A stretch of 64,000 bases of DNA from a bacterium. Lineage in GTDB: Bacteria > Myxococcota > UBA727 > JAUIJE01. Below are positions 11,230-52,609 of this stretch, in pieces (within the stretch, counting starts at the first letter, position 1; each line of letters opens with the position of its first letter). Under the pieces are notes generated by a model. That model was given only the letters and a program-made list of their open reading frames with translations. It was not told where the DNA came from and did not search any database. Location: NCBI GenBank assembly GCA_030431455.1, contig JAUIJE010000003.1, positions 514,360 through 578,359 of the forward strand. The letters run 5' to 3'. Made by a program: the position numbers and the translations under genes.

Positions 11230-11916
11230 ATGGCCGAGACGTGGCGACGTTGCTCCACCTGTAAAAAAGAAATCGCCTACGGGGCACCCATCGTGTTGTG
11301 CAGCGTGAGCACGTGCAACCGGCCGCGCACCGGCATGGTGTTCTGCAGCGAGCCGTGCTGGGACGCCCACGTGCCGATCATGCGGCACCGCGATTGTTGG
11401 TACGAAGAAAAGCGCGCCCCGCGGACCGCCGACGAGGCCGCCGACCGGGCCGCCCAGAGCCGACCGGCCAAGGGTGCGTCCTCGACGACGGACAAGCCCC
11501 CCACCGAGCTCAAAGAGGCCGCGCACGTGCCGCGCGAGGTGCTGATCGTGGCCTCCCGGCTCAAGAGCTACGTCAAGGACCGCTCCGAGATGAACACCTC
11601 GGACAAGGCGATGTCGCCGCTGTCCGACCGCGTGCGGGAGTTGTGCAACGCGGCCATCGCCCGGGCCGCGGCCGACGCCCGCAAGACGGTCTTGGACCGG
11701 GACTTCATGTTGCCCCCCAGCAGCGAAGGGGGCGAGGTGCTGATCGTGGGCTCTCGCTTGAAAAACTACATCAAGGCCAAGAGCGGTCTGCGCACGTCGG
11801 ACACGGTGTTCGACCCGTTGTCCGACTGGGTCCGGCACTACGCCAAAGAGTCCATCCGGGCCGCGGGCATGGACGATCGCAAAACCGTCCTCGACCGGGA
11901 CGTCCCGACGTCGTAA
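11230..11916 (+). CDS. Zinc-finger protein with two tandem histone-fold-like domains
   Basis: A 228-residue protein; ATG 11230 follows a GAGGTG ribosome-binding site. Residues 8-56 hold a likely zinc-binding cluster: C8-x2-C11, C24-x4-C29, C39-x3-C43-x3-H47, H53, C56 (MYND/ZZ-like spacing, not a perfect match to either). After a polar linker come two copies of one module. Copy 1 (about 103-159) begins VLIVASRLKSYVKD and ends RKTVLDRDF. Copy 2 (about 169-225) begins VLIVGSRLKNYIKA and ends RKTVLDRD. Each reads as short helix, loop, long helix, then an R-K-T-V loop, which is the order and signature of archaeal histones (RKTI/V before helix 3) and of short bacterial histones with truncated helix 3. 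I infer a DNA-binding doublet with a zinc-finger tail. The gene is 8 bp upstream of a membrane-protein gene. Family assignment is by eye. Confidence 0.75.
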   Translation: MAETWRRCSTCKKEIAYGAPIVLCSVSTCNRPRTGMVFCSEPCWDAHVPIMRHRDCWYEEKRAPRTADEAADRAAQSRPAKGASSTTDKPPTELKEAAHVPREVLIVASRLKSYVKDRSEMNTSDKAMSPLSDRVRELCNAAIARAAADARKTVLDRDFMLPPSSEGGEVLIVGSRLKNYIKAKSGLRTSDTVFDPLSDWVRHYAKESIRAAGMDDRKTVLDRDVPTS

Positions 11917-11924
11917 GGGGCTGC

Positions 11925-12989
11925 ATGCTGCTGCCCCTCGCTTTGTGCGCTTTGTCGCTGTCCGCGGCGCAGACCGATCCGGCCGGCGCGGTGTCCCCTC
12001 CCCCGCCGACGGCGATGGCGCCCGAGGCCACCTTCCGCCGGGAAGCCCTGAGCGTGGCCCTCGGCGACGACGGGGAGCCCCAGTTTTTCCGTGGCGACGG
12101 GCAACTGCCCATCGAGAGCGAGGAGTTCTACACCCGGGTCGGCCGCGCCGACCTCGGCCAGAACGCGTGGCTGCGCCAGAGCGTCCGGGCCTACGCCCCC
12201 GAGGTGGGCTGGGGCGTGGGCATCCTCGGCGTGGTGGCCGCGGTGGGCATCTGGGCGCTCGGGGAGCAATACATTCCCGCCACCCCATCACAGTTCGACG
12301 GCTTGCCCTTTTCCGAGTCCTATCCCCTGTTGCTGCTCATCGGCGGCATCGGCGGCACCGCCGCCCTCGTCGGCCTGGCCATCGGCCTCGGCGCCCCGTT
12401 TTTGATGCAGGAGCCGCCGCTGCCCGAGCTCAAGGGCATGGCCCGGGCGCACAACCAACAGCTCGCAGAGAAGCTCGGGGTCGACCCCACCATCGTGAGC
12501 GAACAGGCCGCGCCCCCCGTCGAGGCACCCGCCGCCGCCCCCACCGGGGCGGTGACCCCGCGCCGCGCGGACGAGTACCTCACCCGCGACGTGGAGTCGG
12601 ACACCACCGTGCGCGTCGCGGTGCTCAGCCTCGACGAAGCGGTGTCGGCCCAGGGCGCCCTCCTCGAGGACAACCTCACCCAGGCGATCAGCGACCTCGA
12701 CGACGTGCGCGGCATCTCGACCCTCGCGCTGCCCTTTTCCCGGGAGCCGCTCACCACCTGCGGCACCGAGCCGGTGTGCTTGGCCCAATCCGCGGCCACG
12801 GTGCGGGCCAAGCTCGCCCTCGGCGTGCATCTGCTGCCCACCGAAGGCGCGGTCTCGGTGACGTTTATTCTCGTCGACCGGCGCGGCCGGGTGCTGCACC
12901 AAGACCAAGTGCAAGCCGAGACCCTCGAGCTGGCCATGAATGCGGCGGGACAGAAAGCCCAAGAGCTGCTTCGTCCGCTCAGCCAGTAG
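11925..12989 (+). CDS. Membrane protein with C-terminal CsgG-like domain
   Basis: 354 residues from ATG 11925; the ribosome-binding site AAGGGG overlaps the stop of the histone-fold gene. It has a signal-like N-terminus (LLPLALCALSLSAAQ), then a polar region. Two membrane segments lie near residues 88-112 (VGILGVVAAVGIWALG) and 126-155 (LLLLIGGIGGTAALVGLAIG). The C-terminal part (about 220-350, starting VRVAVLSLDEA) resembles the CsgG/TolB-N-type fold found in two other genes of this window (45426 and 58011): a beta-strand, ordered helices and a VFILVDRRGRVLH-like strand pair. Function is unknown; such domains often occur in envelope lipoprotein systems. Confidence 0.7.
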   Translation: MLLPLALCALSLSAAQTDPAGAVSPPPPTAMAPEATFRREALSVALGDDGEPQFFRGDGQLPIESEEFYTRVGRADLGQNAWLRQSVRAYAPEVGWGVGILGVVAAVGIWALGEQYIPATPSQFDGLPFSESYPLLLLIGGIGGTAALVGLAIGLGAPFLMQEPPLPELKGMARAHNQQLAEKLGVDPTIVSEQAAPPVEAPAAAPTGAVTPRRADEYLTRDVESDTTVRVAVLSLDEAVSAQGALLEDNLTQAISDLDDVRGISTLALPFSREPLTTCGTEPVCLAQSAATVRAKLALGVHLLPTEGAVSVTFILVDRRGRVLHQDQVQAETLELAMNAAGQKAQELLRPLSQ

Positions 12990-21873: not shown

Positions 21874-22668
21874 TTACCCCATCGCCGGGGGGCTCGACAT
21901 CCGCAGCCCGACGGTGCCCAACTGATCCACCCGAACCTGGACACGGCTGCCGGCGTCGAAGGGAATCGCCTGGGTCGCGCCCCCGGCCAACACCACCGCG
22001 CCCGCCGGGAGGGACATCGAACGCTCGGCCATCATGTTGCAAAGCTCGACCAACGAGCGGAGCGGGTGCTCGAGGATGGCCGCAGAGTTGCCCACCGCGG
22101 CCACCGCCCCGTCTTTTTCCATCACCATCCCGAGGTTGCCGAGGTCGATGTCCCCGGGGCGACGCGCGACCTCGCCGAGCACAAAGTAGCTGGAGCTCGC
22201 GTTGTCCGCGACCACGTCTTCGAGGGTGAACTTGAAGTTTGCGTAGCGCGAGTTGATGACCTCGAGGGCCGCGTGCACGGTCGAGACCGCGGCCTCGGCC
22301 CGGGCCAACGTGGTGGGTCCGGACAAGGGCTGCCCGAGGACAAACGCGATCTCAGGTTCGATCCGGGGCTGGCTCAGCGTCGTGCGATCGACCTCTTGGT
22401 CGGGATGCAGTTGCATGTCGGCGGTGAGCACACCGTAGATGGGATGGGGCACGCCCATCTGCTCCATCTTCGCCTTGGAGGTGAGCCCCATCTTGTACCC
22501 CACCACCGCGTGGCCCTCGGCCACCCGGTGGGCGATGTTGCGTTGCTGGATGTCGTACGCGGCGGCCACGTCGAAGGGCGTGGTCGTCGACGGTTGGGCC
22601 ACCAAGCGGACCTTCCGGGCCGCGTGGTGCAAGGTCAGGGCGATGTCGTCGCGATCCACGGCGGTCAT
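21874..22668 (-). CDS. 2-keto-4-pentenoate hydratase / 4-oxalocrotonate decarboxylase family enzyme
   Basis: 264 residues, the usual length for this fumarylacetoacetate-hydrolase-like family. The core motif GYKMGLTSKAKMEQMGV and the metal-site segment RIEPEIAFVLG carry the expected Glu pair. VINSRYANFKFTLEDVVADN fits the VxDNxSS region. Relatives act in meta-cleavage degradation of aromatics (hydration of 2-hydroxypentadienoate, or decarboxylation of 4-oxalocrotonate). No other degradation gene is nearby, so the physiological substrate is open. The ATG overlaps the stop of the giant TPR gene by 4 bp, which couples their translation despite unrelated roles. Confidence 0.85.
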   Translation of the reverse strand: MTAVDRDDIALTLHHAARKVRLVAQPSTTTPFDVAAAYDIQQRNIAHRVAEGHAVVGYKMGLTSKAKMEQMGVPHPIYGVLTADMQLHPDQEVDRTTLSQPRIEPEIAFVLGQPLSGPTTLARAEAAVSTVHAALEVINSRYANFKFTLEDVVADNASSSYFVLGEVARRPGDIDLGNLGMVMEKDGAVAAVGNSAAILEHPLRSLVELCNMMAERSMSLPAGAVVLAGGATQAIPFDAGSRVQVRVDQLGTVGLRMSSPPAMG

Positions 22669-25600
22669 GGCTGCTCCCGGTCTTTGGTGCGGGGGTCGGC
22701 GGCCAACAGCTGAGCCCCCGCCTCAGGCGACAGGGCCAGACCCAACCGCTCCCGCAGGGCCAGGTAGTCGCTGCCGATGGAAAAAGAGATGAGCTCGGTG
22801 ACCAACCGCCGGGCGTTCTTTTCGGTGGCCCGCAACCGCTGGGTGGCCATCAGAATGTCACTGCACAAGAGCAATCCGGTGCGGTGCCCGGTGTATTCCA
22901 CCCCGCGCACGAAGTGATTGATGGGGAGCTTTTGGCGCGCGTGGGCGTACTGCCGCACCGCGTCCTCGACGCGGCGGCGGCCGTCGTCGCCGGCCTGGGC
23001 GAGGGCGGCGTCCACCGAGCGGCGCAACCGGCTGGCGAGCTTTTGGTCATGTACCGGCACGTCGGCTTCGCGGGTGGCGTAGGCCGCCACCAGCGCGAGC
23101 AGGGCCTGCTTCAATGTCTCTGGATCGGTCGCCGCCACCACCCGGCCATACGACGACAGCGACCCCGTGGCCCGCCCCAGGTCGAACGCCCGGGTGGGGG
23201 TCATGCCCCCCTTCATCACCTGCGCGCCCACCGCCAAGGTGGGCCGGGCCGCGTGCACGGGGTGAAAGCCGTCGTCGTGGGCGGACTCGACGAGGAGAAT
23301 CTCGCCGTCCACGCCGACCAACGCCTGGGCCGCGCGCAACGCTTGTTGCACCGACCGGGGCAGGCGGTGCTCGGCGACCTTGGGCCGGCCCGCCTCGAAG
23401 GTGGGCCCGAGCTCGCGCACGAGGATGTCCGACAACAACGTCAACACCGTGCGGATTGGCGTGCGCACGTCGGGGTGGGCCAACCGGCGGTGCACGTCGC
23501 TCATGTCTTTGGCCGGGGTGGGCCACTGGGGGAACGGGGGCCGGGTGTTGCGGTGCGCGGCCCGGTGCCCGTCGGAGGCGAGGTCCGACGCGCACATCGC
23601 GGCCAACACCACGAACACCCCGTCGGGCCGGTCCGCGCGGCGCATGAGGTTGAGCAAGGCGCGCCACGCGTCGGGGGAGAACGGATCGAGCGCGAGCACC
23701 TCGCGCCACTTGTCCGTGGCCTGGTTGAGCGCGCCGATCTCCGCGTAGATGCGGGCGGCGTCCTCCCGCGCCTTGACCGCGCCCTTGTCCTGGGCCGCGA
23801 TGGCCTCGAGGGCCTCGGCCGCGCCGCGCAGGTCGCGCAGGTCGTAGCGGCGCACCTGGCTCAGCCGCTCGAGCAGCGACACGCGCCCCTCGGTGTCGGT
23901 GTTGCTCAGGAGCTTGAGCTGGGTGAGGTAGAGGTTCTCCAAGCCCCGGGCGTCGGTCTGCGCGGTGAACACCGCCTCGGCCATGTCCAGGGCCCGCGCG
24001 TTGGTCGGGTCCTCGTCGATGGACCGGCGCAGCTCGTCGGCGGCGCGGGCCTCGTCGCCCAGCTTGCGGAACAGCGCCGCTTTCTCGACGTGCAGCGCGC
24101 TCGCCTCCGGGCCACCCCCGATGCGGGCGAGGAGCTCGTCGAGGGACGTGAGCACGTCCTCGGTCTTGCCCTCGTCGATGTCGAGCTCCACCATGCGCTC
24201 GCGCGGCTCTTTGGCGTCGTTGTCGAGGGCCGAGGCCTCCTCGTACAACGCCCGGGCCAAGCCCCGGTCCGAGAGCCGCCCGTGGGCCAGCCGCCCCGCC
24301 TCGGTGAGGTCGCGGGCCGCGCCCCGGCTGTCTTTGTGTTTGGCCCGGGCCTGGAGAAAGCGCACCCGGTGGCGCACGTCGTCGTCGTTGTCGTCGCGGA
24401 AGATGTGCAGCCCGAGGTCGAGGGCCGCGGGGCTGAGCGCGTCCGCCCCCTCGCGCACCGCCTGGGTCGCGGCCTTGCCGATGGCGAGGCGGGCCCCCTC
24501 GTCGTCGTGCTCGGCGGCGCGGGCCACCGCCAAATCCCCCCACAGCCGGGCCCGCTCGTCGGCGGTGAGGTTGTCCCCGTGGTGCACCAAGTACCGCTCA
24601 AGCAGGTCGCGCCGGCGATCGCCGGGGGTGCTCTCGCTGTCCAGCCTCAAAATGTGGCTGAGTGCCACCGGGTCTTGGGGACGCTCGTCGAGCAAGGCGG
24701 AAAAATCGTTGCGGGCCCGGCCATCGCCCCGGTCGGCCCGGCACAGGGCCCGGAGCCGGCGCACCTCGAAGGGGGCCGCGGACAGGTCCGCCTCGTCGAG
24801 CAGGGGCCCAACCTCGTCGAGAAAGCCCCGGCTCGGCTTGGCCCAGGTGGGGTCTTGTTCGCCGTGCACCGCCGAGGCTTGGGCCAGCCACGCGGTGAGC
24901 AGCGCGGGGTCGTCGGGGGCCGCGCGCACCGCCCCCGCATAGGCCGCGGCCGCGGCCGCGGCCTGGCCTTGCTCCGACTCGAACGCGGCGAGGGCCACAA
25001 ACGCCTCCGCCTGCGCCGGCCCGGGGGGACTCGCGGCGGCCAGGCCCCGGAGCGCCCGGCCTTGGGCCGCCCCCTCGCCCTGCCGCGCGGCCAGGTCCCG
25101 CAATGATATCCATGCTTGCAGATTTGTCGAATCGAGCTCCGCGGCGACCTCGTAGCGCCGCAGCGCGTCGGGGGCGCGCAGCAGATGCTCCTCGAGCAAC
25201 ACCCCGATCCGGTGGTGGATCTGGGCCCGCTCCTTCTTGTCCGCGGTGTGGGCGGCGAGCCGCTCCAGCGGCTGCAGCGCGCCCGCGGGGTCGCCCACGT
25301 CGACCGCGAGCTCGGCCCGGAGCAGCAACGCGGGGATGTGGTGGGGGGACAGCTCGAGGGCGCGGTCCAAAAAGGCCTGGGCGCGCTTGCGCTTTTTCAG
25401 TCGGTCCCGGGACAGGGTCGCGGCCCGGACCCAGAACGGGGCCCGCTCCTCGGCGGGGGCCCGCCGGGCCGCCTCGTCGAGAATCGACACCGCCTCGGCC
25501 ACCTCCGCGGTCTCGAGCAGGTGGCTGAGCAACGCCTCGCGCGGCCCCTCGTGGTCGGGGTGGGTCCGCACCTCGGCGCGCAAGGCCTCGAGGGCCTCGT

Positions 25601-28600
25601 CGTGCGCGCCCCGGCGCGTGAGCAGGTCGTGCAGCCGGTTGAACAGCGCGCGCCGGGTGTCCTCGTCCCGGTCGGTGACCGCGACCTGCATGCGGCGCCG
25701 CAGCCAGGTCTCGTGTTCGGCCGCGTCGGGGCCGGGCCGGTCCGTGAGCTCGACGAGCACATCGAGCGCGGCCTTGTGGTGGGCATCGAAATCGAGCAAC
25801 GCCTTGGCCGCCTGCTCTTTGCCCACCGCGTCGGAGAGCGCGTCGCGGTCGCTGAGCAGCTGCTCCCACACACCGTGGGCGCGGGGGGCGGGCAGGTGCC
25901 GCACGATCCGGCCGTACACCCGGGCCCGCTCGTCGGGCGGGCTTTGGCTGAACACCTCCACCGCCCCCGCGAGCACCTCCTCGTCGCGCAGCCGCAATGT
26001 CACAGCAAGCTCTTCGAACACCGCCTGCCGCTCGCGCAGATCGTCGGACAGCCGCGCCACCACCCGCAACGGGCCCTCCCGGCGGGCGCCGGTCAAATGG
26101 GCCAAGCGGCGGCGGGCGAGGTCGAGCCGAAGGCCGTCGCGGCCCCCGTCGGCCAAACGGTCGTCGAGGTAGCGCGCGACGATCTCGTCCTCGGCCGCGA
26201 TGGGGGCCAAGAAGCTGAACACGTCGTCAACGTCGTCCTGGACCCGCGCGATCAGGATCCAGAAATCGGGCACCCCCTGGACCACCGCGGCGGGGGCGGC
26301 GTCGTACAAGCGGCGGCCCCAGACCAAGCTGAGCTCGGGGTGGTCGGGGGACAGCCGCACAAACCCTCGTTGGGCGTCTTCGCTCAGGGTGCCGAGCTGG
26401 CTCGCCTGCAGCTCGAGGGCCCGGCCGTAGAGGGCGAGCCGCTCGGCGCTGGCCACCGAGTCGTCCTGCGCCCAGGTCAGCGGCACCGCCGCGTCCTCGT
26501 CGGAAAACGCCGCCGCGACCTCGGGCCGAAGCGCGCCTTCCGACGGCGGCCACGCCGGGGTGGTGGCCTCCTCGTCGGCTTGGCTGTGATCGAACGGCTC
26601 CTGGGCCAAGGGCGACGCGTGGGCGTCCGCGGCCACCAAGGCGCCCCGGGCGGACAGCTCGATCTCGGGGGCGGGCGAGCGGATGGTCTCCTCCTCGTCG
26701 TCATCCGGCGAGAACGCCGCGGTGGGGTCATCGAGCGACAAAGGCTCGGCCGGCGCCGCCCCCGGTGCCTCCTCCCCGGACACAGGCGACTCGTCCGACG
26801 ACGACGACGAGTCCGACGACGATGAGTCCGACGACGACGACGAGGACGACGTGACCTGGGCCTCGGCGGTGACGCTCACCAACGGGCGGGCCGGGCCGGT
26901 GGGCTCGTCGAGGGAAAAGGCGTCCGCGGCCTCGTCCATGCCCGGCGGGGGCGGCCCCGCCGGCTCCGCGCTGGCGATCTCCGCCACCGGGATGGCCGCC
27001 ACCGCGGTCTCGGGGGCAGGCTCGGCCGCGGGCTCGGCCGGGGCGGGCTCCTCGACGACGGGCGCGGCGGCCCGCTGGCTCTTGCGCGACCGGGGCCGGG
27101 CGTCGTCGGTGGTGGGCGCGGAGGGCACGGAGTCGTCCACCGACGTGGCGGTGTCGGCGCCGGGCTCGTCGTCCCGCTCGTCGGCGTACGCGCGGGCCTT
27201 CTCCGACGGCCCCGACGCCCGGTCGGCCAACAGCGGGGTCGCTTCGCCCTGGGGCAGGCTCGATTCGTCCGAGACCTGGTCGACGAGCGAAGGCGTGGCC
27301 TGCTCCAGCAACGCAGGGAGCGGCGCCCCCGGCACGGTGGTCTCGAGGGAGTCCGGCTCCGGCGCCCCCGGGGGCGCGCTCGGGGGCAACGAAGTCGCGG
27401 GGATGGTCGGGACCGGGGTGGGGGTGGGGGTGGGGGTGGACGGCTCGTCGGCGAACACGCCCCCGTCGTCGGACAGGCTGCGCGCGTCCTCGAGGCTGGG
27501 GCCGCTGGAGAACGTGGGGGCCGGGGTGAGGGTGGTCTCGATGGCCGCGGCGGACGGCGCCGGGGTCAGGGCCTCGTCGGGGGCGGCGCGCATCGGCATG
27601 GAGACGTCCGCGGGCACCACCGGGCCGTCCTCTTCGCTTTTGGACACCGGGTGGGCCCCCGCGCTCTCGTCCCACGGGCTCTCGCTGTCCTGCTCGGTGG
27701 GGGCCGGCGCCGGTTGCCGCCGGTCAATTTCGGTTTCGTCCTCGACGCTGGGAAACGACACCGCCACCGGCGCGGGCCCGGGCGCGGCCTGGTCCTCGTC
27801 CCGGCTTTGCTCCCAGGTGGACTGGTCCTCGTCGTCGCCCGCCGCGGTGTCGACCTCCTCGTAGGGGGGCGGCTCGGCTGGGCCCTCTTGGGACGGGGTG
27901 GGCGCAGGCGGCGGCAATCCCAATGCATTGCTCAGGCGGATCGCGTGGCGGCGCGCGGCTTTGCTCTTGTTGTCGATGGCGAGCGCTTTCAAGAACGCGT
28001 CCCGGGCCGCGTCTTGGTCGTCGAGCCCGCGCTCATAGAGCACGCCGAGCTTGGTGCAGATCTGGGCCCGAGCGGCGTCGGACAGGTCCTCGGCGTCGCT
28101 GAGCTCGCCGAGCACCGCGGTCAGCTCGGTGAACCGTTCGGTCTCCATCGCCAGCCGCACCGCCTCGTCGACGCTGGCGGCCCGGGACGGGGCCGCGCGC
28201 AAGAGCTTGAGCGACTCCAAAAACGCGCGGTCCTTGTCCCCGAAGCGCTCGGACAGGCCGATCAACGCCTCCCGGTAGCCGAGCTGGCGCTCGGTGCCCT
28301 TGACCTGCGGGGCCCGCGCCGCCTTGCGCAAGGCGTCCAGCAACATGGTGGGGCCCCCCGCGGCCTCGAGCAGGTCGTCCACGTCGGGCACCACCGGGGC
28401 CTCGGCGAGCAAGATGGCCGCGACCTCGGCGGTGCCGCGCTCGTCGCCGAGCACCTTGGTGTAGATGTCCAACGCCCGTTCCCAGTGGGGCATGCGGGCC
28501 TCGGTGTCGGCGGCGGCTTCGGCCGCCCGGAGCTCGAGGCCGGCCAGGGTGCGGTACCGCGCCTGCACCTCTTGGCCGGGAACGAGGGCGAGCTGGAGCT

Positions 28601-28736
28601 TTTCGATCCACGCGTCCACGCAGGCGATGGCCGCGACCGGCCCGCCGTCCTGCTCGATGCCGTCGAGCAAGGCCGCCAGCGCCTCGGGGTCTTGCCCCTC
28701 GTCCACCGCGGCCAAAAAACGCTCGGTCTCCTGCAC
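22665..28736 (-). CDS. Giant TPR-repeat protein (2023 residues)
   Basis: The start is set at GTG 28736 because GGGAGG precedes it at about 9 nt and nearly all upstream codons run into the divergent VOC gene. Residues 1-290 and about 780-1750 are helical, with repeated TPR-type pairs (for example AREDAARIYAEIGALNQATDKW). Residues about 300-760 are acidic, Pro/Ser-rich and of low complexity, including a Ser/Asp tract near 629-650. The last 270 residues form a separate domain (VQQALRAAQALVGVDGEIL to LLLCSDILMATQRL). I recognise it only as the C-terminal module of other very large myxobacterial TPR proteins. No signal peptide or membrane segment is seen, so it is a cytoplasmic scaffold. It is coupled to the hydratase gene. 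Confidence 0.85.
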   Translation of the reverse strand: MQETERFLAAVDEGQDPEALAALLDGIEQDGGPVAAIACVDAWIEKLQLALVPGQEVQARYRTLAGLELRAAEAAADTEARMPHWERALDIYTKVLGDERGTAEVAAILLAEAPVVPDVDDLLEAAGGPTMLLDALRKAARAPQVKGTERQLGYREALIGLSERFGDKDRAFLESLKLLRAAPSRAASVDEAVRLAMETERFTELTAVLGELSDAEDLSDAARAQICTKLGVLYERGLDDQDAARDAFLKALAIDNKSKAARRHAIRLSNALGLPPPAPTPSQEGPAEPPPYEEVDTAAGDDEDQSTWEQSRDEDQAAPGPAPVAVSFPSVEDETEIDRRQPAPAPTEQDSESPWDESAGAHPVSKSEEDGPVVPADVSMPMRAAPDEALTPAPSAAAIETTLTPAPTFSSGPSLEDARSLSDDGGVFADEPSTPTPTPTPVPTIPATSLPPSAPPGAPEPDSLETTVPGAPLPALLEQATPSLVDQVSDESSLPQGEATPLLADRASGPSEKARAYADERDDEPGADTATSVDDSVPSAPTTDDARPRSRKSQRAAAPVVEEPAPAEPAAEPAPETAVAAIPVAEIASAEPAGPPPPGMDEAADAFSLDEPTGPARPLVSVTAEAQVTSSSSSSSDSSSSDSSSSSDESPVSGEEAPGAAPAEPLSLDDPTAAFSPDDDEEETIRSPAPEIELSARGALVAADAHASPLAQEPFDHSQADEEATTPAWPPSEGALRPEVAAAFSDEDAAVPLTWAQDDSVASAERLALYGRALELQASQLGTLSEDAQRGFVRLSPDHPELSLVWGRRLYDAAPAAVVQGVPDFWILIARVQDDVDDVFSFLAPIAAEDEIVARYLDDRLADGGRDGLRLDLARRRLAHLTGARREGPLRVVARLSDDLRERQAVFEELAVTLRLRDEEVLAGAVEVFSQSPPDERARVYGRIVRHLPAPRAHGVWEQLLSDRDALSDAVGKEQAAKALLDFDAHHKAALDVLVELTDRPGPDAAEHETWLRRRMQVAVTDRDEDTRRALFNRLHDLLTRRGAHDEALEALRAEVRTHPDHEGPREALLSHLLETAEVAEAVSILDEAARRAPAEERAPFWVRAATLSRDRLKKRKRAQAFLDRALELSPHHIPALLLRAELAVDVGDPAGALQPLERLAAHTADKKERAQIHHRIGVLLEEHLLRAPDALRRYEVAAELDSTNLQAWISLRDLAARQGEGAAQGRALRGLAAASPPGPAQAEAFVALAAFESEQGQAAAAAAAYAGAVRAAPDDPALLTAWLAQASAVHGEQDPTWAKPSRGFLDEVGPLLDEADLSAAPFEVRRLRALCRADRGDGRARNDFSALLDERPQDPVALSHILRLDSESTPGDRRRDLLERYLVHHGDNLTADERARLWGDLAVARAAEHDDEGARLAIGKAATQAVREGADALSPAALDLGLHIFRDDNDDDVRHRVRFLQARAKHKDSRGAARDLTEAGRLAHGRLSDRGLARALYEEASALDNDAKEPRERMVELDIDEGKTEDVLTSLDELLARIGGGPEASALHVEKAALFRKLGDEARAADELRRSIDEDPTNARALDMAEAVFTAQTDARGLENLYLTQLKLLSNTDTEGRVSLLERLSQVRRYDLRDLRGAAEALEAIAAQDKGAVKAREDAARIYAEIGALNQATDKWREVLALDPFSPDAWRALLNLMRRADRPDGVFVVLAAMCASDLASDGHRAAHRNTRPPFPQWPTPAKDMSDVHRRLAHPDVRTPIRTVLTLLSDILVRELGPTFEAGRPKVAEHRLPRSVQQALRAAQALVGVDGEILLVESAHDDGFHPVHAARPTLAVGAQVMKGGMTPTRAFDLGRATGSLSSYGRVVAATDPETLKQALLALVAAYATREADVPVHDQKLASRLRRSVDAALAQAGDDGRRRVEDAVRQYAHARQKLPINHFVRGVEYTGHRTGLLLCSDILMATQRLRATEKNARRLVTELISFSIGSDYLALRERLGLALSPEAGAQLLAADPRTKDREQP
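26788..26850 (-). repeat. Low-complexity Ser/Asp-coding tract
   Basis: A run of GAC/TCC-type triplets encodes about 20 residues that are nearly all Ser with interspersed Asp (residues about 629-650 of the TPR protein). It is likely a flexible linker and could vary in copy number between strains. Confidence 0.7.
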
Positions 28737-28789
28737 GCTCCATTTCCTCCCGCGTGGCGCGGCGGTAGCACCTCTTGAGGGGGTGCGAA

Positions 28790-29200
28790 ATGACCAACCG
28801 GCCTGACCCACACCCGCCGGCACCGCCGCGGGTACACCATCTCGCCCTGGGCGCCGTCGACGTAGAGCGCGTGGCGGGCTTCTACGCGTCGCTGTTCGGC
28901 CTGCGCGAACGCACCCGGCACCACGACGGCGACGGGGCCCTGCGGTCCATCTGGCTGGAGCTCGACGGGGGGGCGGTGCTCATGATCGAACGACGCAGCG
29001 CGGCGCCGCGGCCCAAGCCCGCCGGCGTCGACGACGGACTGTTCTTGTTGGCCTTCTCCGGCGACGAAGCCGACCGCGAGGCGTTCGCCGCCCGCTGCCA
29101 AGGGAGGGGCGTCGCCATCGAGGACCGCACCGCCCACACCCTCTACGTGCGCGACCCCGAGGACAACCGGGTCGCGTTCAGCAGCCACCCGCTGCGCTGA
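28790..29200 (+). CDS. VOC (glyoxalase/dioxygenase-fold) family protein
   Basis: 136 residues; ATG 28790 follows GAGGGGG. It is a single paired beta-alpha-beta-beta-beta unit: VHHLALGAVDVERVAGFYASLF at the start, LRSIWLELDGGAVLMIE in the middle and TLYVRDPEDNRVAF at the end. His near the first strand and Glu in LMIE could be metal ligands. The family includes glyoxalase I, dioxygenases and antibiotic-binding proteins; the substrate cannot be told. It is transcribed away from the giant TPR gene with only 53 bp between the starts, so their promoters must overlap coding sequence or each other. Confidence 0.85.
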   Translation: MTNRPDPHPPAPPRVHHLALGAVDVERVAGFYASLFGLRERTRHHDGDGALRSIWLELDGGAVLMIERRSAAPRPKPAGVDDGLFLLAFSGDEADREAFAARCQGRGVAIEDRTAHTLYVRDPEDNRVAFSSHPLR

Positions 29201-45425: not shown

Positions 45426-46646
45426 ATGGCGATCACACCGAGCCTGTTGGCCTGTTCGTTTGTGCTGTTGGCGGGACAACTTCCCCCCGACCCGGTCCCG
45501 CCCGCCGACAACACCGCCCCGCCCGCCGACCACACCGCACCGCCCGCCGACAACCCCGCACCGCCCGCCCACGCCGACCCGGCCCCCGCGCCCGCGGCGC
45601 CGGTCCCGGCGACCACCACCGCCCCCGCGCCGTCCGCCCCCGAGGTCGCGGTCGACACCGACGCCGACCGCATCCCCATCGTGGTGCTCAACCTCAAGCC
45701 CCTCGGGGCGAGCCCCGCGTTGGCCGAGACCGTCACCGCGCACCTCGCCGCGCACCTCGACGACCTCGGGGTGTTCCAGGTGCTCACCCAAAACGACATC
45801 CAAAACCTCGTCGACTTCGACGCCACCCGCCTCACCCTGTCCGACGAATCGGCGCGCTCGCGGCTCACGGATTTGGGCAAAGCCCTGGGGGTGCAGTACC
45901 TGATGTTCGGTCAACTCTCCAAGACCGACGCCGGGTTTGTCGTCGAGGTGGTCCTGGTCGATGCCCAGGCCACCACCGTGCTCCGGCGCGAATCCATCGC
46001 CCCCAAGAACTCGACCACCCTGCTCGCGGACAGCAACCGCGCGGTGGACACGGTGGTGCGCGGGTTGCTCGACGCCCGCCGGGGCGAGCTGTTTGTGCTC
46101 AGCGAGCAAGAAGGCGCGACCCTCTACGTCGACGGCACCGCCATCGGCGCGCTGCCCATGGCCCCGCTGTCCATCGGCGCCGGCCCCCACCGCGTAGAGG
46201 TCAAAAAGGACCTCTACGTCGCCGAGACCGTCGACGTCACCGTGCAGCCCGGCCGCCGCCTGACCAAACAAGTGGTGCTCGTGCCCACCGCGGAATGGGT
46301 CGCGAGCTACAACCGCACCGCCTGGCTCTGGGTCGCGGCCGGTTCGTTGGCCGCGGCGGTGGCGGTCGCGACCTTCGCCGCCGGCGCGGGCATCTGGGCC
46401 CTGCAGCGCATCGAGGTCGCGGGCTACCAAGCCGACCCCGATTGGCCCCGGGGCAACGAGAACCGCGACGCGATCATCCTCAAGAGCGAAGCCGACCACA
46501 CCCGCCTCACCGTCATGCGCCTCGGCGGCTATTCCCTGATGATGCTGTCCGCCATCCCCGTGGCCGCGGCCGCGGTCATCTTCGTCGCCGCCGACTACCC
46601 CGGCCGGTACGACCACCTCCTCGACCAATCCGGGACCGCCGAATGA
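45426..46646 (+). CDS. CsgG-like and PEGA domain membrane protein
   Basis: 406 residues; ATG follows GGGGGAG. The N-terminus is hydrophobic (a weak signal), followed by a 7-residue Pro-Pro-Ala-Asp repeat. Residues about 78-210 (RIPIVVLNLKPLG, VFQVLTQNDIQNLV, ALGVQYLMFGQLSKTD) resemble CsgG/TolB-N-type domains. A PEGA surface-layer motif follows (about 215-285; GATLYVDGTAIGALPMAPLS, GPHRVEVKKDLY). Two membrane segments close the protein (about 300-328 and 370-390). It is the first gene of a four-gene operon, overlapping the next gene by 4 bp. It may anchor or assemble the giant lipoproteins encoded downstream; that is inference from order and architecture. Confidence 0.8.
   Translation: MAITPSLLACSFVLLAGQLPPDPVPPADNTAPPADHTAPPADNPAPPAHADPAPAPAAPVPATTTAPAPSAPEVAVDTDADRIPIVVLNLKPLGASPALAETVTAHLAAHLDDLGVFQVLTQNDIQNLVDFDATRLTLSDESARSRLTDLGKALGVQYLMFGQLSKTDAGFVVEVVLVDAQATTVLRRESIAPKNSTTLLADSNRAVDTVVRGLLDARRGELFVLSEQEGATLYVDGTAIGALPMAPLSIGAGPHRVEVKKDLYVAETVDVTVQPGRRLTKQVVLVPTAEWVASYNRTAWLWVAAGSLAAAVAVATFAAGAGIWALQRIEVAGYQADPDWPRGNENRDAIILKSEADHTRLTVMRLGGYSLMMLSAIPVAAAAVIFVAADYPGRYDHLLDQSGTAE
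45498..45569 (+). repeat. 21-bp tandem repeat coding PPADxxA
   Basis: Three full 21-bp units (PPADNTA, PPADHTA, PPADNPA) and a partial fourth lie in frame near the N-terminus of the CsgG/PEGA protein. They form a Pro-rich extracytoplasmic spacer. Confidence 0.75.
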
Positions 46647-49600
46647 CCGCGCGCGGCATGTTCGCCCCCGTCGTGGGGCTCGCCCTGGGCCTGGGCCTGG
46701 GTTGTGACCCCCAACTGTTGCCCCCGCCCCCCGCGGTGAACTTCCTCGTCACCGGCCCGGCGGAGATTCACGAGCTCACCGCCCACGGGCGGCTCGCGGT
46801 CACCGTCACCATCCCCGGCCTGCTCGCGGAAAGCCCCTTGGTGCTCACCACCGACGAGACCGGCCTGTCCGCGAGCGGCTTTTTCGAGATCGCCCTCGAG
46901 GAACAACAACAGAGCACCGCCGAGGTCCGCCTCTACGGCACCGACGACAACACCGTCACCACCCCCGACGTGCTGCTCCTCGAGCAGACCACCGCGGTGA
47001 CCCTCGAGTTTGCCCTCAACGCCATCGAGGTCGTGTTCGACCCGGCCGCCGACGGCGCGTTCGCCGACGACCCCCGCTTCGACCTCAACCAAAATCAACG
47101 CTCCAACTACGACGACCTCAAGGCCGCCTGCACCCCCGGCATCCCTCCCCCGTTGCTCGCGCTGTCCTCGCCGCTGCTGCAGTTCTCCGCGGTGGGCACC
47201 GACACCGACCGCGCGGTGGTGGTCTTTTCCAATGCCCAGTCGAGCGGCAACAGCCCCGCCGATGTCGACACCCCCACCTGCGGCGCGGTCCATCCAGAAG
47301 CATTGCGGGTGTCGGCCAAGCTGCTTGACGCGCCGGGGGTGGTGTTCGAGACCTTCGTGGCCGAGACCGGCGACGCCGGGGGCAGCGCCCTCATCCGCAG
47401 CGAGCTCACCGACACGGTGGACGACCTCATCGTGCGCCCCCGTGAGCAGACCTTGCTCAACACCGCGTTCACCAGCCCCGACAACGTGCGCGTGACCGGC
47501 GCGGTCCTGCTCTCGGCCGAACATTGTCGCTGCGGCTACGCCACCCAGAGCTACGCCGCGGTGGTGGCCAACGCCCAGTTCCCCCCCCAGGTGGTGCCCC
47601 TCGACTACGTGCCCGGGGTGCTCCCCGACGACGATGCCCTCGCGTACCTGGCGTTCCCGGCCCCGTTGCTGTTCTCGGGCCAGGGGCTGCCCATCAACGT
47701 GCCCGCCAACGTGGCCACCGTCGACGGCTTTGACGCCGCGGTGGCGTACGTGGCCACCATCCCCGCGTCCCACCAAGTCAGTGTGCTCCTGTCCGATGCC
47801 GACGCCGACCTCGACCTCGCGGTGTTCAGCGTAGACGGGGCTGGCGCGTTGGCCCCCCTCGACGACGCGCGCTCGGCCTTCATCGGGCCCGCGTCGGTGG
47901 AGGGGCTCGAGCTGTCCTTCGACACCACCACCCAGATCGCGGTCCTCATCGGGCACAAGCCCGGCCAAGCCCTCGGCGACGATGCCGGGGCCAACCTCGT
48001 GGTCCACGCCTATGGCGGGCCCGCGCTCGCCGGCATCAGCCCGTTTGGGGGCGCGGTCGCGGGGGGCACTGAAGTCACATTGCGGGGGGCGCGGTTCGAC
48101 GCCGCCAGCCAAGTGCTGTTCGGGGGGGTGCTCGCGGATGACGTCGAGGTCGCGCCCGACGGGCAGACCCTCACCTGCACCACCCCCGCGGGCAGCCTGC
48201 TCCCCGGGCTCAACCCCGCCGCGGTCACGGTGCAAAATCCCGGGGGGCAAAGCAGCACGCTTCCGTCGTCGTTCGTGTATTGGCCCGGCACCCCCACGCT
48301 GTCCTCGCTGAACCCCTTGGCGGTGGCCCCGGGGGGCGTGGTCACGCTCTCGGGGAGCGGGTTTTCCAATGTGTTTGGAACCCCCGCGGTCACCGTCGAC
48401 GACAACCCCGCGCAGGTCATCGGGGTGTCGGCCTCGGAGCTTCTGTTCGTGGCCCCCGACGGTCCTGCCGCGGGGGACGCCCACGACGTCAGCGTGCAAA
48501 ATCGAGTGCCCCAGGGCCAAACCGCCGAACCCGCCGCGACCTTGGCCGCGGCCCTGACCTACATCGACGCGCTGTCGCCGCCGCCGGTGCTCGCGTCCCT
48601 CGATCCCACCATCGGGCCCCAATCCGGCGGGTTTGTGCTCACCGCGGTGGGGGCCGATTTTGCCCCTGGCGCCGAGCTCCTCGTCGGGCCCTTGGCGTTG
48701 ATCTCCAACGTCATCGACCCCACCACCCTCACCGCCGCGGTCCCCCCGTTGGCCCTCAGCGGCGTGCTCGACGTCCGGGTCCGCAACCCCGACGGCCTCA
48801 CCTCCGATCCTTTGCCTCTCGTCATCGAGCCCACCGTGCTCCAAGGGGCCCCCAGCATCGAACTGGTGACCTCCCAGAACGGGGTCCACGCCGCCGTCGC
48901 CGGCGACGTGCTTCAGCTGTTCGGGAGCAACCTCAACCTCTCGGACGCGGTGCTGTGCACCATTTCCGATGGCACCGGCACCTACCTCGCCGCGGTGGGG
49001 GGCCAGGCCGGGCTGTCGGTGTCCTGTGTCGTCGTCGACCCACTGCCCGAGGGGCTTCCGCTCACCGCCCGGGTGGACTTCGCGGGCGGCCAGAGCGCGA
49101 CCTCGCCGGTGTTTTTCGCCGAGGCCCCGCGGGTGACCGCGATCCAGACCGTGGGCACGCCGGTGAGCGGGGCCGATTTTTCGGTGATCGTCACCGGCCA
49201 GCACCTGTTCGGCAGCCAGGTCACCGGGGTCGCGTTCGAGCGGCCGGACGGCACCCGCACCACCCTGGTGCCCACCGCCACCGCCAGCGAGACCGTGCTC
49301 AGCCTCGACATCCCTGCAGGCACATTGGCTCAGGCCAGCCACCAGGTGTTCGTGACCTACCCCGGCGGCTTTGAGGCCGGGGCCCCCCTGCCCTTCACCG
49401 TGGGGGGCAGCTGCGGCAACAACGTGGCCGAGGGCATCGAGCAATGTGACGGCATGGACCTCAACGACACCACCTGCCAGACCCTGGGCTACGAGACCGG
49501 GGCGCTGTCCTGCGCGGCCGCGACCTGCCAGTTCGACACCGCGCTGTGCGGCAGCTGCCAGGACGGCAAGCACGACCCGGGCGAACAGTGCGACCAGCAA

Positions 49601-52600
49601 GACCTCGGCGGCCAATCGTGCCTCACCCTGGGCTACGACAAGGGTGTGCTCGGGTGCGCGGACACTTGCTTTTTTGACCTCGCCGACTGCTCGTTCGGGG
49701 TGTGTGGGGACAACATCTGTGACCCCGACGAGACCGGGGCGAGCTGCGCCAATGACTGCACCGCGGACTGCGGTGACGACGTGTGCGCGGGGGGCGAGAC
49801 CTGCCTCGACTGCGCCAACGACTGTGGCCTGTGCGTGCTCGAGCTTGTCAGCGGCGGCGATGTGAACATCCCCGCCTACGCCCCCGCCGCCACCCCGCCC
49901 CAGGTGCGGGTCATCACCGGGCCCACCGGGGTCCCGGTCACGCACAACGACGTGGACCTCGAGATCCAATCGTTCCCCACCGCGTGGACCGCGTCGGTGA
50001 CCGAGACCGGGGCCAATGCCGATGGATTGTACAACGTCAACATCACCGCCGGCCGCGCGGCGGGGGTCGACGGGGTGGTGACCGTGGCCGGCGCGGCCGG
50101 GGCCCCCATCGCTTCAGCCCTCGACATCCCCGTGCACAGCGTCGACATCCCCGTCGGCAACATCGTGGCGGTGTTCAACCGGTCCAACTTCCAAGTCACG
50201 TCCCCGGCCGGGATCGACGGGGACTACCCCGCGGCCTATGCCTACAAGCAGTCCAATGAGCAGATCAGCTCGTTCGCCCTCGCCCCCGGTGGTGACATCT
50301 ACTTTGCCCGCGAAGAGCCCAACGACCGGGGCTATGTCATGCGCATCGATGCCCAGGGCATCATGCACCGCATCGGTTCGCTGGACCCGAGCGGGGACTT
50401 CGCCGGCGTGCCTGGCCCCGCCGGCCAGGCCTCGGTGGGCCGCATCGACGACCTGGACCTCGGCCCCGACGGCACGCTCTACGCGTTCGTGACCCCCGCC
50501 AATGTCAGTGACCCGGTCATCGTCGCCTACACCCCCAGCACCCCCGGCGGGGTCATCGACCAGACCGCGACCGTGACCCGCATTCCCTTCACCGTGTTGA
50601 GCGGGTCCACCACCACCAAGGCCTTGCGGGTGATGCCCGATGGCCGGCTGCTGGTGGCCGGCTCCCTCATCTTCAACGGAGAGGTCTACCTGCTCGACCC
50701 CGTGACCGGCGTGCAGCGCCAGCTGCGACCTCCTTGCACCGACGACAGCAACAACCACATTGCGCGTATGCTCCCCGCCCTCGACGTGGCCAGCAACGGC
50801 ACGTTCCTGTACGGCAGCGACGAGCCCAGCCACTGCCTCGGGTCCCGCGGGATCTACGCGTACAACCCCAGCGATGGCTTCACCGCCCGCATCGACACCT
50901 ACACTCCGATCTCCCTCGCCCCCGCCCGGGGCTTCGCCTACTCCGTCGACGAGACCGCGGTGCTGGTCGCGCCGCCCTCACACCACGTGTTCCGGTACGA
51001 CGCCGCCGGCCACGCCCAGCGGGTGGTCGGGCCCCCGTCCAGCAGCGCCGACTACCAGGGCAACAATGGCCCGGCCACGTCCGCGCGCATCAATTCCGCC
51101 AGCGACCTGCATGTGCACGATGCCACCGGCGACCTCTATTTCATCGACCAGAACCAAAGCGTGATCCGCATGGTGCGCGGGGTCGCCCTCACTGGCCGCA
51201 CCCTCGTGGCCGACGCCAGCCCCGACACCTCGGGGGGCGATCCCGGCGACGACCAGACCGTGCTCCCCACCGAGCGGTTGCCGTTGGCGCTGCGCGTCCA
51301 CATCGACGCCACCCTCGACGGGGCCCCCATCGACGCGGAGTACACCCCGGTGCGCATCACCAGCAACCTGCCCGGGCTGAGCGTGCTGCCCACCACCCCG
51401 TGGGCCCGCAATGTCTTTGGAGCGGGCAACACCCAGGCGCTGATCACCCCCGGCCCCACCGCCGGCGCCGGCACCCTCACCGCCACCGCGGTCGATTTCG
51501 CGGGCCGCGACGCCGGCGCCCCCCACGTCTTCACCTTCACCGTCGACGACCCGCCCGCGGGCACCGTGCTCCGGCGGGCCAACCACGACGTCCAGTCCGG
51601 GGCCGACCTGGCCCCGTTGCCCCCGGCCTCGCGGCTGCGGTTCGATTTCAAAAACCTCGAACGCACCCCGGTGGCCGCCCACAGCACCGGCATCTACATC
51701 GGGGAGACAAACCGCGACCGCGTCATCCGTCTTTTCCCCGACGGCTCCGCCGAGGTGTTCGGCGGGGGCGGGACCGTCACCACCAACGGCACCCCGGTGG
51801 CCGACCTCGCCCTCCCCGACCTGCGCGGGCTGGCCGTCGACGGTGACACCCTCTACATCGCCACCGCGGGGGACGACCAAATCCGCAAGGTCGACCTCAC
51901 CGACCCCGACCACATCGCCACCGCCGCGGTGGGGGGCGGGCCGGGTGCCCCCCTCTCGGTGGCCAACGTGCTCAACGACCGCAACCTCGCGGTGGACGCT
52001 TTGAGCGTGAACCTGCCCAACCCCGACGCTCTCACCGCCCACAACGGCCGGCTCTACTTCACCGCCGCGGGCGACACCAACGACGTGTTCGCCTACGAGG
52101 GGGGCGTGCTCTGGCGCTACATCGCCGACGTGGGCTGTACCTACGACGGCGGGTTCCCCGCCGCGCTCACCATTCACGACCTCGCCACCGACCCGGTGGA
52201 CGGGACCCTGTACCTCGGCGGTCTTTGCAACGACCTTTGCTCGCGCGACGAGTCCATCACCCGGCTCATCGACACCAACGACGTGGGCGTCTACGACGAG
52301 ACCATCTCCATCGACGGCGACAACTGCGGACTCAACGGGCGCGTCGGCCTCACCGCCGGGCCCGATCAGGGCCTGTACGCCACCGTCACCACCGAGCACC
52401 GGGTCAAGCGCCTGGTGTGGCCCGACCCGGTGAGCCTCACCACCCTGGTGGGCACCGGGGTGGCGGGACAAGGCCCGGTCGGGCCCCGGGCCACCTGCGC
52501 CCTCAGCGAACCCGAGGGCTTGGCCTTCGACGGGAACGACCTTGTCATCGCCGACAACGACAACTTCGGGGTGCGGGTGGTCCATGACTTGATCGGGGAT

Positions 52601-52609
52601 TTGCCATGA
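46643..52609 (+). CDS. Giant IPT/TIG and beta-propeller lipoprotein A (1988 residues)
   Basis: The ATG lies in a 4-bp overlap with the CsgG/PEGA gene. The signal peptide ends at LGLGC with Cys21 as the lipidation site. Residues 25-450 are a beta-rich region shared with the next gene (LLAESPL, RLYGTDD). IPT/TIG-type Ig domains follow (about 455-900; ISPFGGAVAGGTEVTLRGA, LNPLAVAPGGVVTLSGSG, LDPTIGPQSGGFVLTAVG). A Cys-rich block (about 921-1069; CGNNVAEGIEQCDG, CGDDVCAGGETC) comes next. The rest looks like NHL/SMP-30-type propeller blades (VFGGGGTVTTNGTPVADLAL, GDDQIRKVDLT). The whole is outer-surface in design: ligand or polysaccharide binding is more likely than catalysis. The 3' end resembles that of its neighbour at DNA level (GACTTGATCGG then TTGCCATGA). 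Confidence 0.85.
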   Translation: MTARGMFAPVVGLALGLGLGCDPQLLPPPPAVNFLVTGPAEIHELTAHGRLAVTVTIPGLLAESPLVLTTDETGLSASGFFEIALEEQQQSTAEVRLYGTDDNTVTTPDVLLLEQTTAVTLEFALNAIEVVFDPAADGAFADDPRFDLNQNQRSNYDDLKAACTPGIPPPLLALSSPLLQFSAVGTDTDRAVVVFSNAQSSGNSPADVDTPTCGAVHPEALRVSAKLLDAPGVVFETFVAETGDAGGSALIRSELTDTVDDLIVRPREQTLLNTAFTSPDNVRVTGAVLLSAEHCRCGYATQSYAAVVANAQFPPQVVPLDYVPGVLPDDDALAYLAFPAPLLFSGQGLPINVPANVATVDGFDAAVAYVATIPASHQVSVLLSDADADLDLAVFSVDGAGALAPLDDARSAFIGPASVEGLELSFDTTTQIAVLIGHKPGQALGDDAGANLVVHAYGGPALAGISPFGGAVAGGTEVTLRGARFDAASQVLFGGVLADDVEVAPDGQTLTCTTPAGSLLPGLNPAAVTVQNPGGQSSTLPSSFVYWPGTPTLSSLNPLAVAPGGVVTLSGSGFSNVFGTPAVTVDDNPAQVIGVSASELLFVAPDGPAAGDAHDVSVQNRVPQGQTAEPAATLAAALTYIDALSPPPVLASLDPTIGPQSGGFVLTAVGADFAPGAELLVGPLALISNVIDPTTLTAAVPPLALSGVLDVRVRNPDGLTSDPLPLVIEPTVLQGAPSIELVTSQNGVHAAVAGDVLQLFGSNLNLSDAVLCTISDGTGTYLAAVGGQAGLSVSCVVVDPLPEGLPLTARVDFAGGQSATSPVFFAEAPRVTAIQTVGTPVSGADFSVIVTGQHLFGSQVTGVAFERPDGTRTTLVPTATASETVLSLDIPAGTLAQASHQVFVTYPGGFEAGAPLPFTVGGSCGNNVAEGIEQCDGMDLNDTTCQTLGYETGALSCAAATCQFDTALCGSCQDGKHDPGEQCDQQDLGGQSCLTLGYDKGVLGCADTCFFDLADCSFGVCGDNICDPDETGASCANDCTADCGDDVCAGGETCLDCANDCGLCVLELVSGGDVNIPAYAPAATPPQVRVITGPTGVPVTHNDVDLEIQSFPTAWTASVTETGANADGLYNVNITAGRAAGVDGVVTVAGAAGAPIASALDIPVHSVDIPVGNIVAVFNRSNFQVTSPAGIDGDYPAAYAYKQSNEQISSFALAPGGDIYFAREEPNDRGYVMRIDAQGIMHRIGSLDPSGDFAGVPGPAGQASVGRIDDLDLGPDGTLYAFVTPANVSDPVIVAYTPSTPGGVIDQTATVTRIPFTVLSGSTTTKALRVMPDGRLLVAGSLIFNGEVYLLDPVTGVQRQLRPPCTDDSNNHIARMLPALDVASNGTFLYGSDEPSHCLGSRGIYAYNPSDGFTARIDTYTPISLAPARGFAYSVDETAVLVAPPSHHVFRYDAAGHAQRVVGPPSSSADYQGNNGPATSARINSASDLHVHDATGDLYFIDQNQSVIRMVRGVALTGRTLVADASPDTSGGDPGDDQTVLPTERLPLALRVHIDATLDGAPIDAEYTPVRITSNLPGLSVLPTTPWARNVFGAGNTQALITPGPTAGAGTLTATAVDFAGRDAGAPHVFTFTVDDPPAGTVLRRANHDVQSGADLAPLPPASRLRFDFKNLERTPVAAHSTGIYIGETNRDRVIRLFPDGSAEVFGGGGTVTTNGTPVADLALPDLRGLAVDGDTLYIATAGDDQIRKVDLTDPDHIATAAVGGGPGAPLSVANVLNDRNLAVDALSVNLPNPDALTAHNGRLYFTAAGDTNDVFAYEGGVLWRYIADVGCTYDGGFPAALTIHDLATDPVDGTLYLGGLCNDLCSRDESITRLIDTNDVGVYDETISIDGDNCGLNGRVGLTAGPDQGLYATVTTEHRVKRLVWPDPVSLTTLVGTGVAGQGPVGPRATCALSEPEGLAFDGNDLVIADNDNFGVRVVHDLIGDLP

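What the first reader, a model, noticed from the sequence alone, without database searches (positions are those of the whole stretch)
11230..11916. Bacterial protein combining a zinc finger with a tandem histone-fold doublet
The sequence shows two copies of a module of about 57 residues, each opening with VLIV(A/G)SRLK(S/N)Y and closing with RKTVLDRD, behind an eight-Cys/two-His cluster (C8, C11, C24, C29, C39, C43, H47, H53, C56 and nearby). Archaeal histones have the same helix-loop-long helix-RKT(I/V) layout, and short bacterial histones with a truncated third helix are known. Zinc-finger histone-fold proteins have been predicted in bacteria; a covalent doublet with a zinc-finger tail would bind DNA as a pre-formed pseudo-dimer and might have a new wrapping or bridging mode. 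The function here is inference.
Basis: partly seen in the sequence, partly recalled or inferred. Interest (0 to 1): 0.85.

Follow-up and report, generated by a model that had tools for sequence, protein, structure and literature searches.

The report
Zinc-finger bacterial histone with two folds
A bacterium carries a protein in which a zinc finger is joined to two histone modules in one chain, modelled to fold into a ready-made DNA-bending unit; zinc-finger bacterial histones were already described, but with a single histone module, so this is a new layout of a known kind.

Summary
HF1 matches the Bdellovibrio histone HBb (Bd0055) at E 7e-10. An AlphaFold2 model (pLDDT 88) gives both modules histone folds, and residues 101-228 superpose as one unit on single-chain H2A-H2B and on the Methanopyrus kandleri doublet: an intramolecular pseudodimer. 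Both modules keep most HBb DNA-contact residues. The protein is a doublet variant of the published 'ZZ histones' (alpha3 family), which were described with one histone domain. One other such doublet was found, in the same order; well over 100 related finger-histones in a second phylum showed none. In the window's genome it is the only histone found, beside three HU/IHF-type genes. Best reading: a covalent, HBb-like, non-specific DNA bender with one finger per bending unit, the finger recruiting a partner. DNA binding, zinc and the finger's target are inferred, not shown.

The parts
11230..11916 (+). Whole gene: zinc finger + histone-fold doublet, 228 aa
   Evidence: coding composition; homologues
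11230..11427 (+). N-terminal cross-brace zinc finger, aa 1-66; ligands C8, C11, C24, C29, C39, C43, H47, H53
   Evidence: Ligands conserved in 32 relatives; model pLDDT 88.9; best fold matches p62 ZZ and MYND fingers, weak
11428..11532 (+). Linker aa 67-101 (aa 82-88 pLDDT under 50)
11533..11706 (+). Histone fold 1, aa 102-159 (alpha1 108-119, alpha2 125-148, one-turn alpha3 156-158)
   Evidence: phmmer to HBb 8cmp E 7.4e-10; model; superposition on HBb 0.9-1.9 A
11707..11730 (+). Short inter-fold linker aa 160-167 (MLPPSSEG)
11731..11901 (+). Histone fold 2, aa 168-224 (alpha1 174-185, alpha2 191-214, one-turn alpha3 222-224)
   Evidence: 57% identity to HF1, E 1e-20; model; together with HF1 superposes on histone dimers

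Best explanation
A doublet variant of the ZZ (zinc-finger) alpha3 histones. Two HBb-like histone folds in one chain fold on each other into a pseudodimer that binds the DNA backbone through the alpha1 face and the L1-L2 loops and bends about 30 bp of DNA without sequence specificity, as HBb does as a homodimer. The zinc finger hangs on a flexible linker and most likely binds a protein partner, so the protein would recruit that partner to bent DNA (or the reverse). Compared with an ordinary ZZ histone, whose homodimer would carry two fingers, fusing the folds gives one finger per bending unit and makes the unit independent of protein concentration. Shown here: gene, ligand set, homology of both folds, modelled pseudodimer, conservation of DNA-contact residues, sole histone found in the genome. 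Inferred: DNA binding and bending, zinc content, monomeric state, finger as recruiter.
For: HF1 hits HBb and HLp by sequence. The model has mean pLDDT 88.3; aa 101-228 align as one unit to single-chain H2A-H2B (Z 10.4), M. kandleri 1f1e (Z 9.7, 126 aa, 2.9 A) and Sos1 (Z 9.6). Of the ten HBb residues with most DNA contacts in PMC11317129, HF1 keeps eight identical plus K10 to R; HF2 keeps seven identical plus K10 to R and N22 to R; the R-D clamp and RKT are intact in both. The finger ligands are conserved. A second genome of the same order, from another family, has the same finger + doublet layout, 37% identical over 241 aa. No other histone was found in the window's genome. Three HU/IHF-type genes are present, so the protein need not be the bulk packager.
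Against: The model is a monomer prediction from 30 sequences, of which only one other is a doublet; predicted aligned error was not available and pTM is 0.60. HBb's T8 contact is lost in both folds and A25 is D in both. Net charge is modest (+3 and +2). The finger's partner is unknown, and no conserved neighbour points to a pathway. In B. bacteriovorus the ZZ histone is reported as low-expressed (PMC11390915), so a role as genome packager is doubtful.
Confidence: 0.65

Rival explanations
1. Intermolecular pairing: the two folds of a chain pair with folds of other chains, so the doublet links two dimers and bridges or polymerises along DNA.
For: AlphaFold2 was run on a monomer only. The HF1 and HF2 sequences are similar enough that homotypic pairing is not excluded. 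The inter-fold linker is only about 8-13 residues.
Against: The monomer model already pairs HF1 with HF2 in a histone-dimer arrangement. A 2026 review states that no tandem histone-fold protein has so far been found to use the tandem for homodimerisation (PMC13088155).
Confidence: 0.15
2. A protein-interaction adaptor: the pseudodimer has turned from DNA binding to binding another protein, like SPT3 or Sos1, and the finger binds a second partner.
For: Some tandem histone folds do this (SPT3, Sos1), and Sos1 and SAGA Spt3 are among the structural matches. Modest positive charge, and A25 to D in both folds.
Against: Most HBb DNA-contact residues and the R-D clamp are conserved in both folds, unlike DUF1931 doublets, which are reported to lack them (PMC12701072).
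Confidence: 0.16
3. A finger that reads tails of another histone, as eukaryotic ZZ domains read H3.
For: Eukaryotic ZZ domains are among the closest folds to the finger (p62, p300, HERC2).
Against: No second histone was found in this genome. Schwab et al. [quoted passage not shown]
Confidence: 0.04

Closest known systems
ZZ histones (alpha3 family; Schwab et al. 2024, PMC11390915; e.g. D0LYE7 of Haliangium ochraceum)
   Different: The published description has one histone fold; this protein has two in tandem.
Bacterial dimer histone HBb / Bd0055 (PDB 8cmp, 8fvx, 9ezz, 9f0e)
   Same: Fold (0.9-1.9 A over HF1), about 40% identity, RKT, R-D clamp, most DNA-contact residues.
   Different: HBb is a single fold that homodimerises and has no finger.
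DUF1931 bacterial pseudodimers (1wwi Thermus thermophilus, 1r4v Aquifex aeolicus)
   Same: Two histone folds in one bacterial chain; the model superposes at Z 9.3 and 6.9.
   Different: DUF1931 proteins are reported to lack the DNA-binding residues; here they are kept in both folds. No sequence match to 1wwi or 1r4v was found.
Methanopyrus kandleri doublet histone (1f1e)
   Same: Covalent pseudodimer reported to bind DNA; Z 9.7, 126 residues, 2.9 A.
   Different: Archaeal nucleosomal-type folds, no finger.

Membership tests
alpha3 histones | Histone fold with truncated alpha3 (3-4 residues) and shortened alpha2 | tested here: met
   Model: alpha3 of 3 residues (156-158, 222-224) and alpha2 of 24 residues in both folds
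alpha3 histones, bacterial-dimer type | RKTxxxD / R-D clamp and basic alpha1 residues present | tested here: met
   RKT and the R-D clamp in both folds; R, K, K at HBb K10, K12, K16 in both
alpha3 histones, bacterial-dimer type | Lacks the face-to-face residues R48 and N52 | tested here: inconclusive
   N52 position is D in both folds; R48 position is R in HF1 and A in HF2 (read from the alignment; feature)
ZZ histones | N-terminal finger with C4 and C2H2 sites | tested here: met
   C8, C11, C39, C43 and C24, C29, H47, H53 conserved across 32 relatives; published ligands. Zinc itself not tested
ZZ histones | Finger has the ZZ-type fold | tested here: inconclusive
   p62 ZZ is the top Foldseek hit but E 0.14, VIA Z 4.2, with MYND and LIM fingers close by; no Pfam ZZ hit among 32 members
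ZZ histones | One histone domain at the C-terminus (as described) | tested here: not met
   Two histone folds; filed as a variant, not a plain member
DUF1931 pseudodimer histones | DNA-binding residues absent | tested here: not met
   Residues present in both folds; feature from PMC12701072
DNA-bending histones (HBb-like) | Binds and bends DNA | not testable with these tools
   Needs purified protein

The most novel reading that the evidence does not exclude
A single-chain, DNA-binding bacterial doublet histone with one zinc finger per bending unit, acting as a concentration-independent, partner-guided DNA bender; a DNA-competent bacterial doublet, unlike the DUF1931 doublets.
Probability: 0.4. 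Interest if true: 0.62.

Novelty: new variant of a known kind. Interest (0 to 1): 0.5.

Why it matters
The known bacterial doublet histones (DUF1931) are reported to lack DNA-binding residues, and the known bacterial DNA-binding histones are single folds. A bacterial doublet that keeps the DNA contacts in both halves shows the fusion step, familiar from archaea and giant viruses, in the alpha3 family. It is also practical: an obligate pseudodimer allows each half, and the finger, to be mutated separately to ask what the still unexplained finger of ZZ histones does.

Tried and rejected
Unrelated helical family: rejected; Pfam alone gives no hit over threshold (PF00808 14.6 bits; YutD-like and pepF hits are far below cut-off), but phmmer to solved histones and the model settle it. 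Phage or plasmid origin: no match to the protein in phages or plasmids, none confirmed in viral contigs. Conserved operon: the neighbourhoods of eight finger-histone genes share nothing except between two close relatives and a generic NtrC-type regulator. History of the doubling: trees of about 60 columns do not resolve it; the two G006 folds pair with each other (93/81), window HF1 sits with a single-fold relative (95/83) and window HF2 with another (88/82), which leans towards separate doublings, but no grouping tested is rejected (AU p 0.17-0.40). Finger class by sequence: no hit over a Pfam cut-off was sought further; weak hits only (zf-FLZ, C1_2, FCS). Supplementary tables of the Hocher and Schwab papers were not readable here, so a listed finger + doublet protein there cannot be excluded.

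Full report
What is there. The frame at 11230-11916 (+) starts at ATG, with GAGG a few bases upstream, and encodes 228 aa. Its composition by codon position (GC 0.58/0.52/0.90) is that of a real gene in this 70% GC genome. Two modules, aa 102-159 and 168-224, are 57% identical over 56 residues (E 1e-20) and far outside shuffles (148 against a maximum of 44). The finger region holds seven Cys, not eight. Across 32 relatives C8, C11, C24, C29, C43, H47 and H53 are invariant and C39 nearly so, while C56 is not conserved.

The modules are histone folds. phmmer against PDB sequences gives HBb of Bdellovibrio (8cmp E 7.4e-10; 8fvx 1e-9) and the Leptospira histone HLp (9qt0, 1e-4), all through HF1. 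Pfam alone stays below its cut-off. AlphaFold2 with 30 aligned window and locus proteins gives pLDDT 88.3, pTM 0.60, with helices 108-119 and 125-148, then 174-185 and 191-214, each pair followed by a one-turn alpha3. Foldseek and VIA-align match aa 101-228 as a whole to single-chain H2A-H2B (Z up to 10.4), M. kandleri HMk (Z 9.7, 126 residues, 2.9 A), Sos1 (9.6) and Thermus 1wwi (9.3); HF1 alone superposes on HBb at 0.9-1.9 A. So the two folds pair within one chain in the model. For helical proteins a Z near 10 can be unspecific; here the top rows are all tandem or fused histone dimers, the first unrelated (AAA+) rows sit at 6.4 and below, and sequence homology agrees.

DNA contacts. The HBb study names N22, R57, S9, T53, T8, S24, K10, K12, K52 and K16 as the residues with most DNA contacts, plus the R51-D58 clamp (PMC11317129). 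HF1 keeps eight of the ten and has R for K10; HF2 keeps seven and has R for K10 and N22. T8 is A or G, and A25 is D in both. The clamp and RKT are intact. The second doublet (G006) has lost K16 in both folds.

The finger. Alone it models at pLDDT 88.9. The closest folds are the p62 ZZ domain (Foldseek E 0.14, probability 0.89; VIA Z 4.2) and MYND and LIM fingers, none strongly; no member hits the Pfam ZZ family. The ligand order matches the C4 + C2H2 set that Schwab et al. describe for ZZ histones. I therefore use their name but hold the fold class as unproven. The same finger also occurs as a stand-alone protein of about 70 aa in several families of the phylum.

Distribution. In the 195 genomes held for the window's phylum, finger + histone proteins were found in the window genome, G006 (same order, different family), G020, G062 and G046; one more is in a Kofleriaceae MAG. 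Only the window and G006 have the doublet. Matches running clearly past that fold cross stop codons, and 13 long-frame candidates, read in full, contain one fold or only the finger. So the doublet looks confined to one order in this sample. Whether it arose once or twice is unresolved.

Genome setting. No other histone was found in the window's genome by three queries (sub-threshold profile hits were not followed). Three HU/IHF-type genes are present. The next gene (11925-12989, no family) begins 8 bases after the stop and may be co-transcribed; an NtrC-type regulator follows. Neighbourhoods are not conserved.

Mechanism. The best-supported reading is an HBb-like non-specific DNA bender whose dimer has been made covalent, with one flexible finger that binds a partner. 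Shown: sequence, homology, modelled pairing, conserved contacts. Inferred: DNA binding, bending, zinc, monomeric state and recruitment. An ordinary ZZ histone dimer would carry two fingers; the doublet carries one. This would remove finger-mediated bridging between two fingers of one unit and is directly testable.

Comparison and novelty. Finger + single alpha3 histone is published (PMC11390915). Bacterial doublets are published as DUF1931 pseudodimers that lack DNA-binding residues (PMC12701072; PMC13088155). I found no paper in the held library describing a finger + alpha3 doublet, but supplementary tables could not be read. I rate it a new variant of a known kind.

Noticed in passing
L032 and L053 (G195): This genome has the same zinc finger as a stand-alone 108-aa protein and an HBb-like histone as a separate gene: the two modules are split rather than fused.
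   Followed up: partly
L005-L007, L009, L035-L046: A stand-alone finger protein of about 65-75 aa (CxVCKKPI..C.VSTCNRKR..FCS..CWDAHNP..NHR) is widespread in several families of the phylum with no histone attached; no Pfam family clearly covers it.
   Followed up: partly
L013-L025: Stand-alone histones with R and N at the face-to-face positions (for example ...RCKANKRSTV), apparently face-to-face histones, are common in the same phylum.
   Followed up: no
window 11925-12989: Protein of 354 aa with no family match starts 8 bases after the doublet's stop codon; probably co-transcribed.
   Followed up: partly
window 46295-58014: Two adjacent giant proteins (2104 and 1802 aa) matching only IPT/TIG domains.
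   Followed up: no
window 22665-28823 (-): Frame of 2052 aa with no Pfam match at 1e-8; may or may not be a real gene.
   Followed up: no
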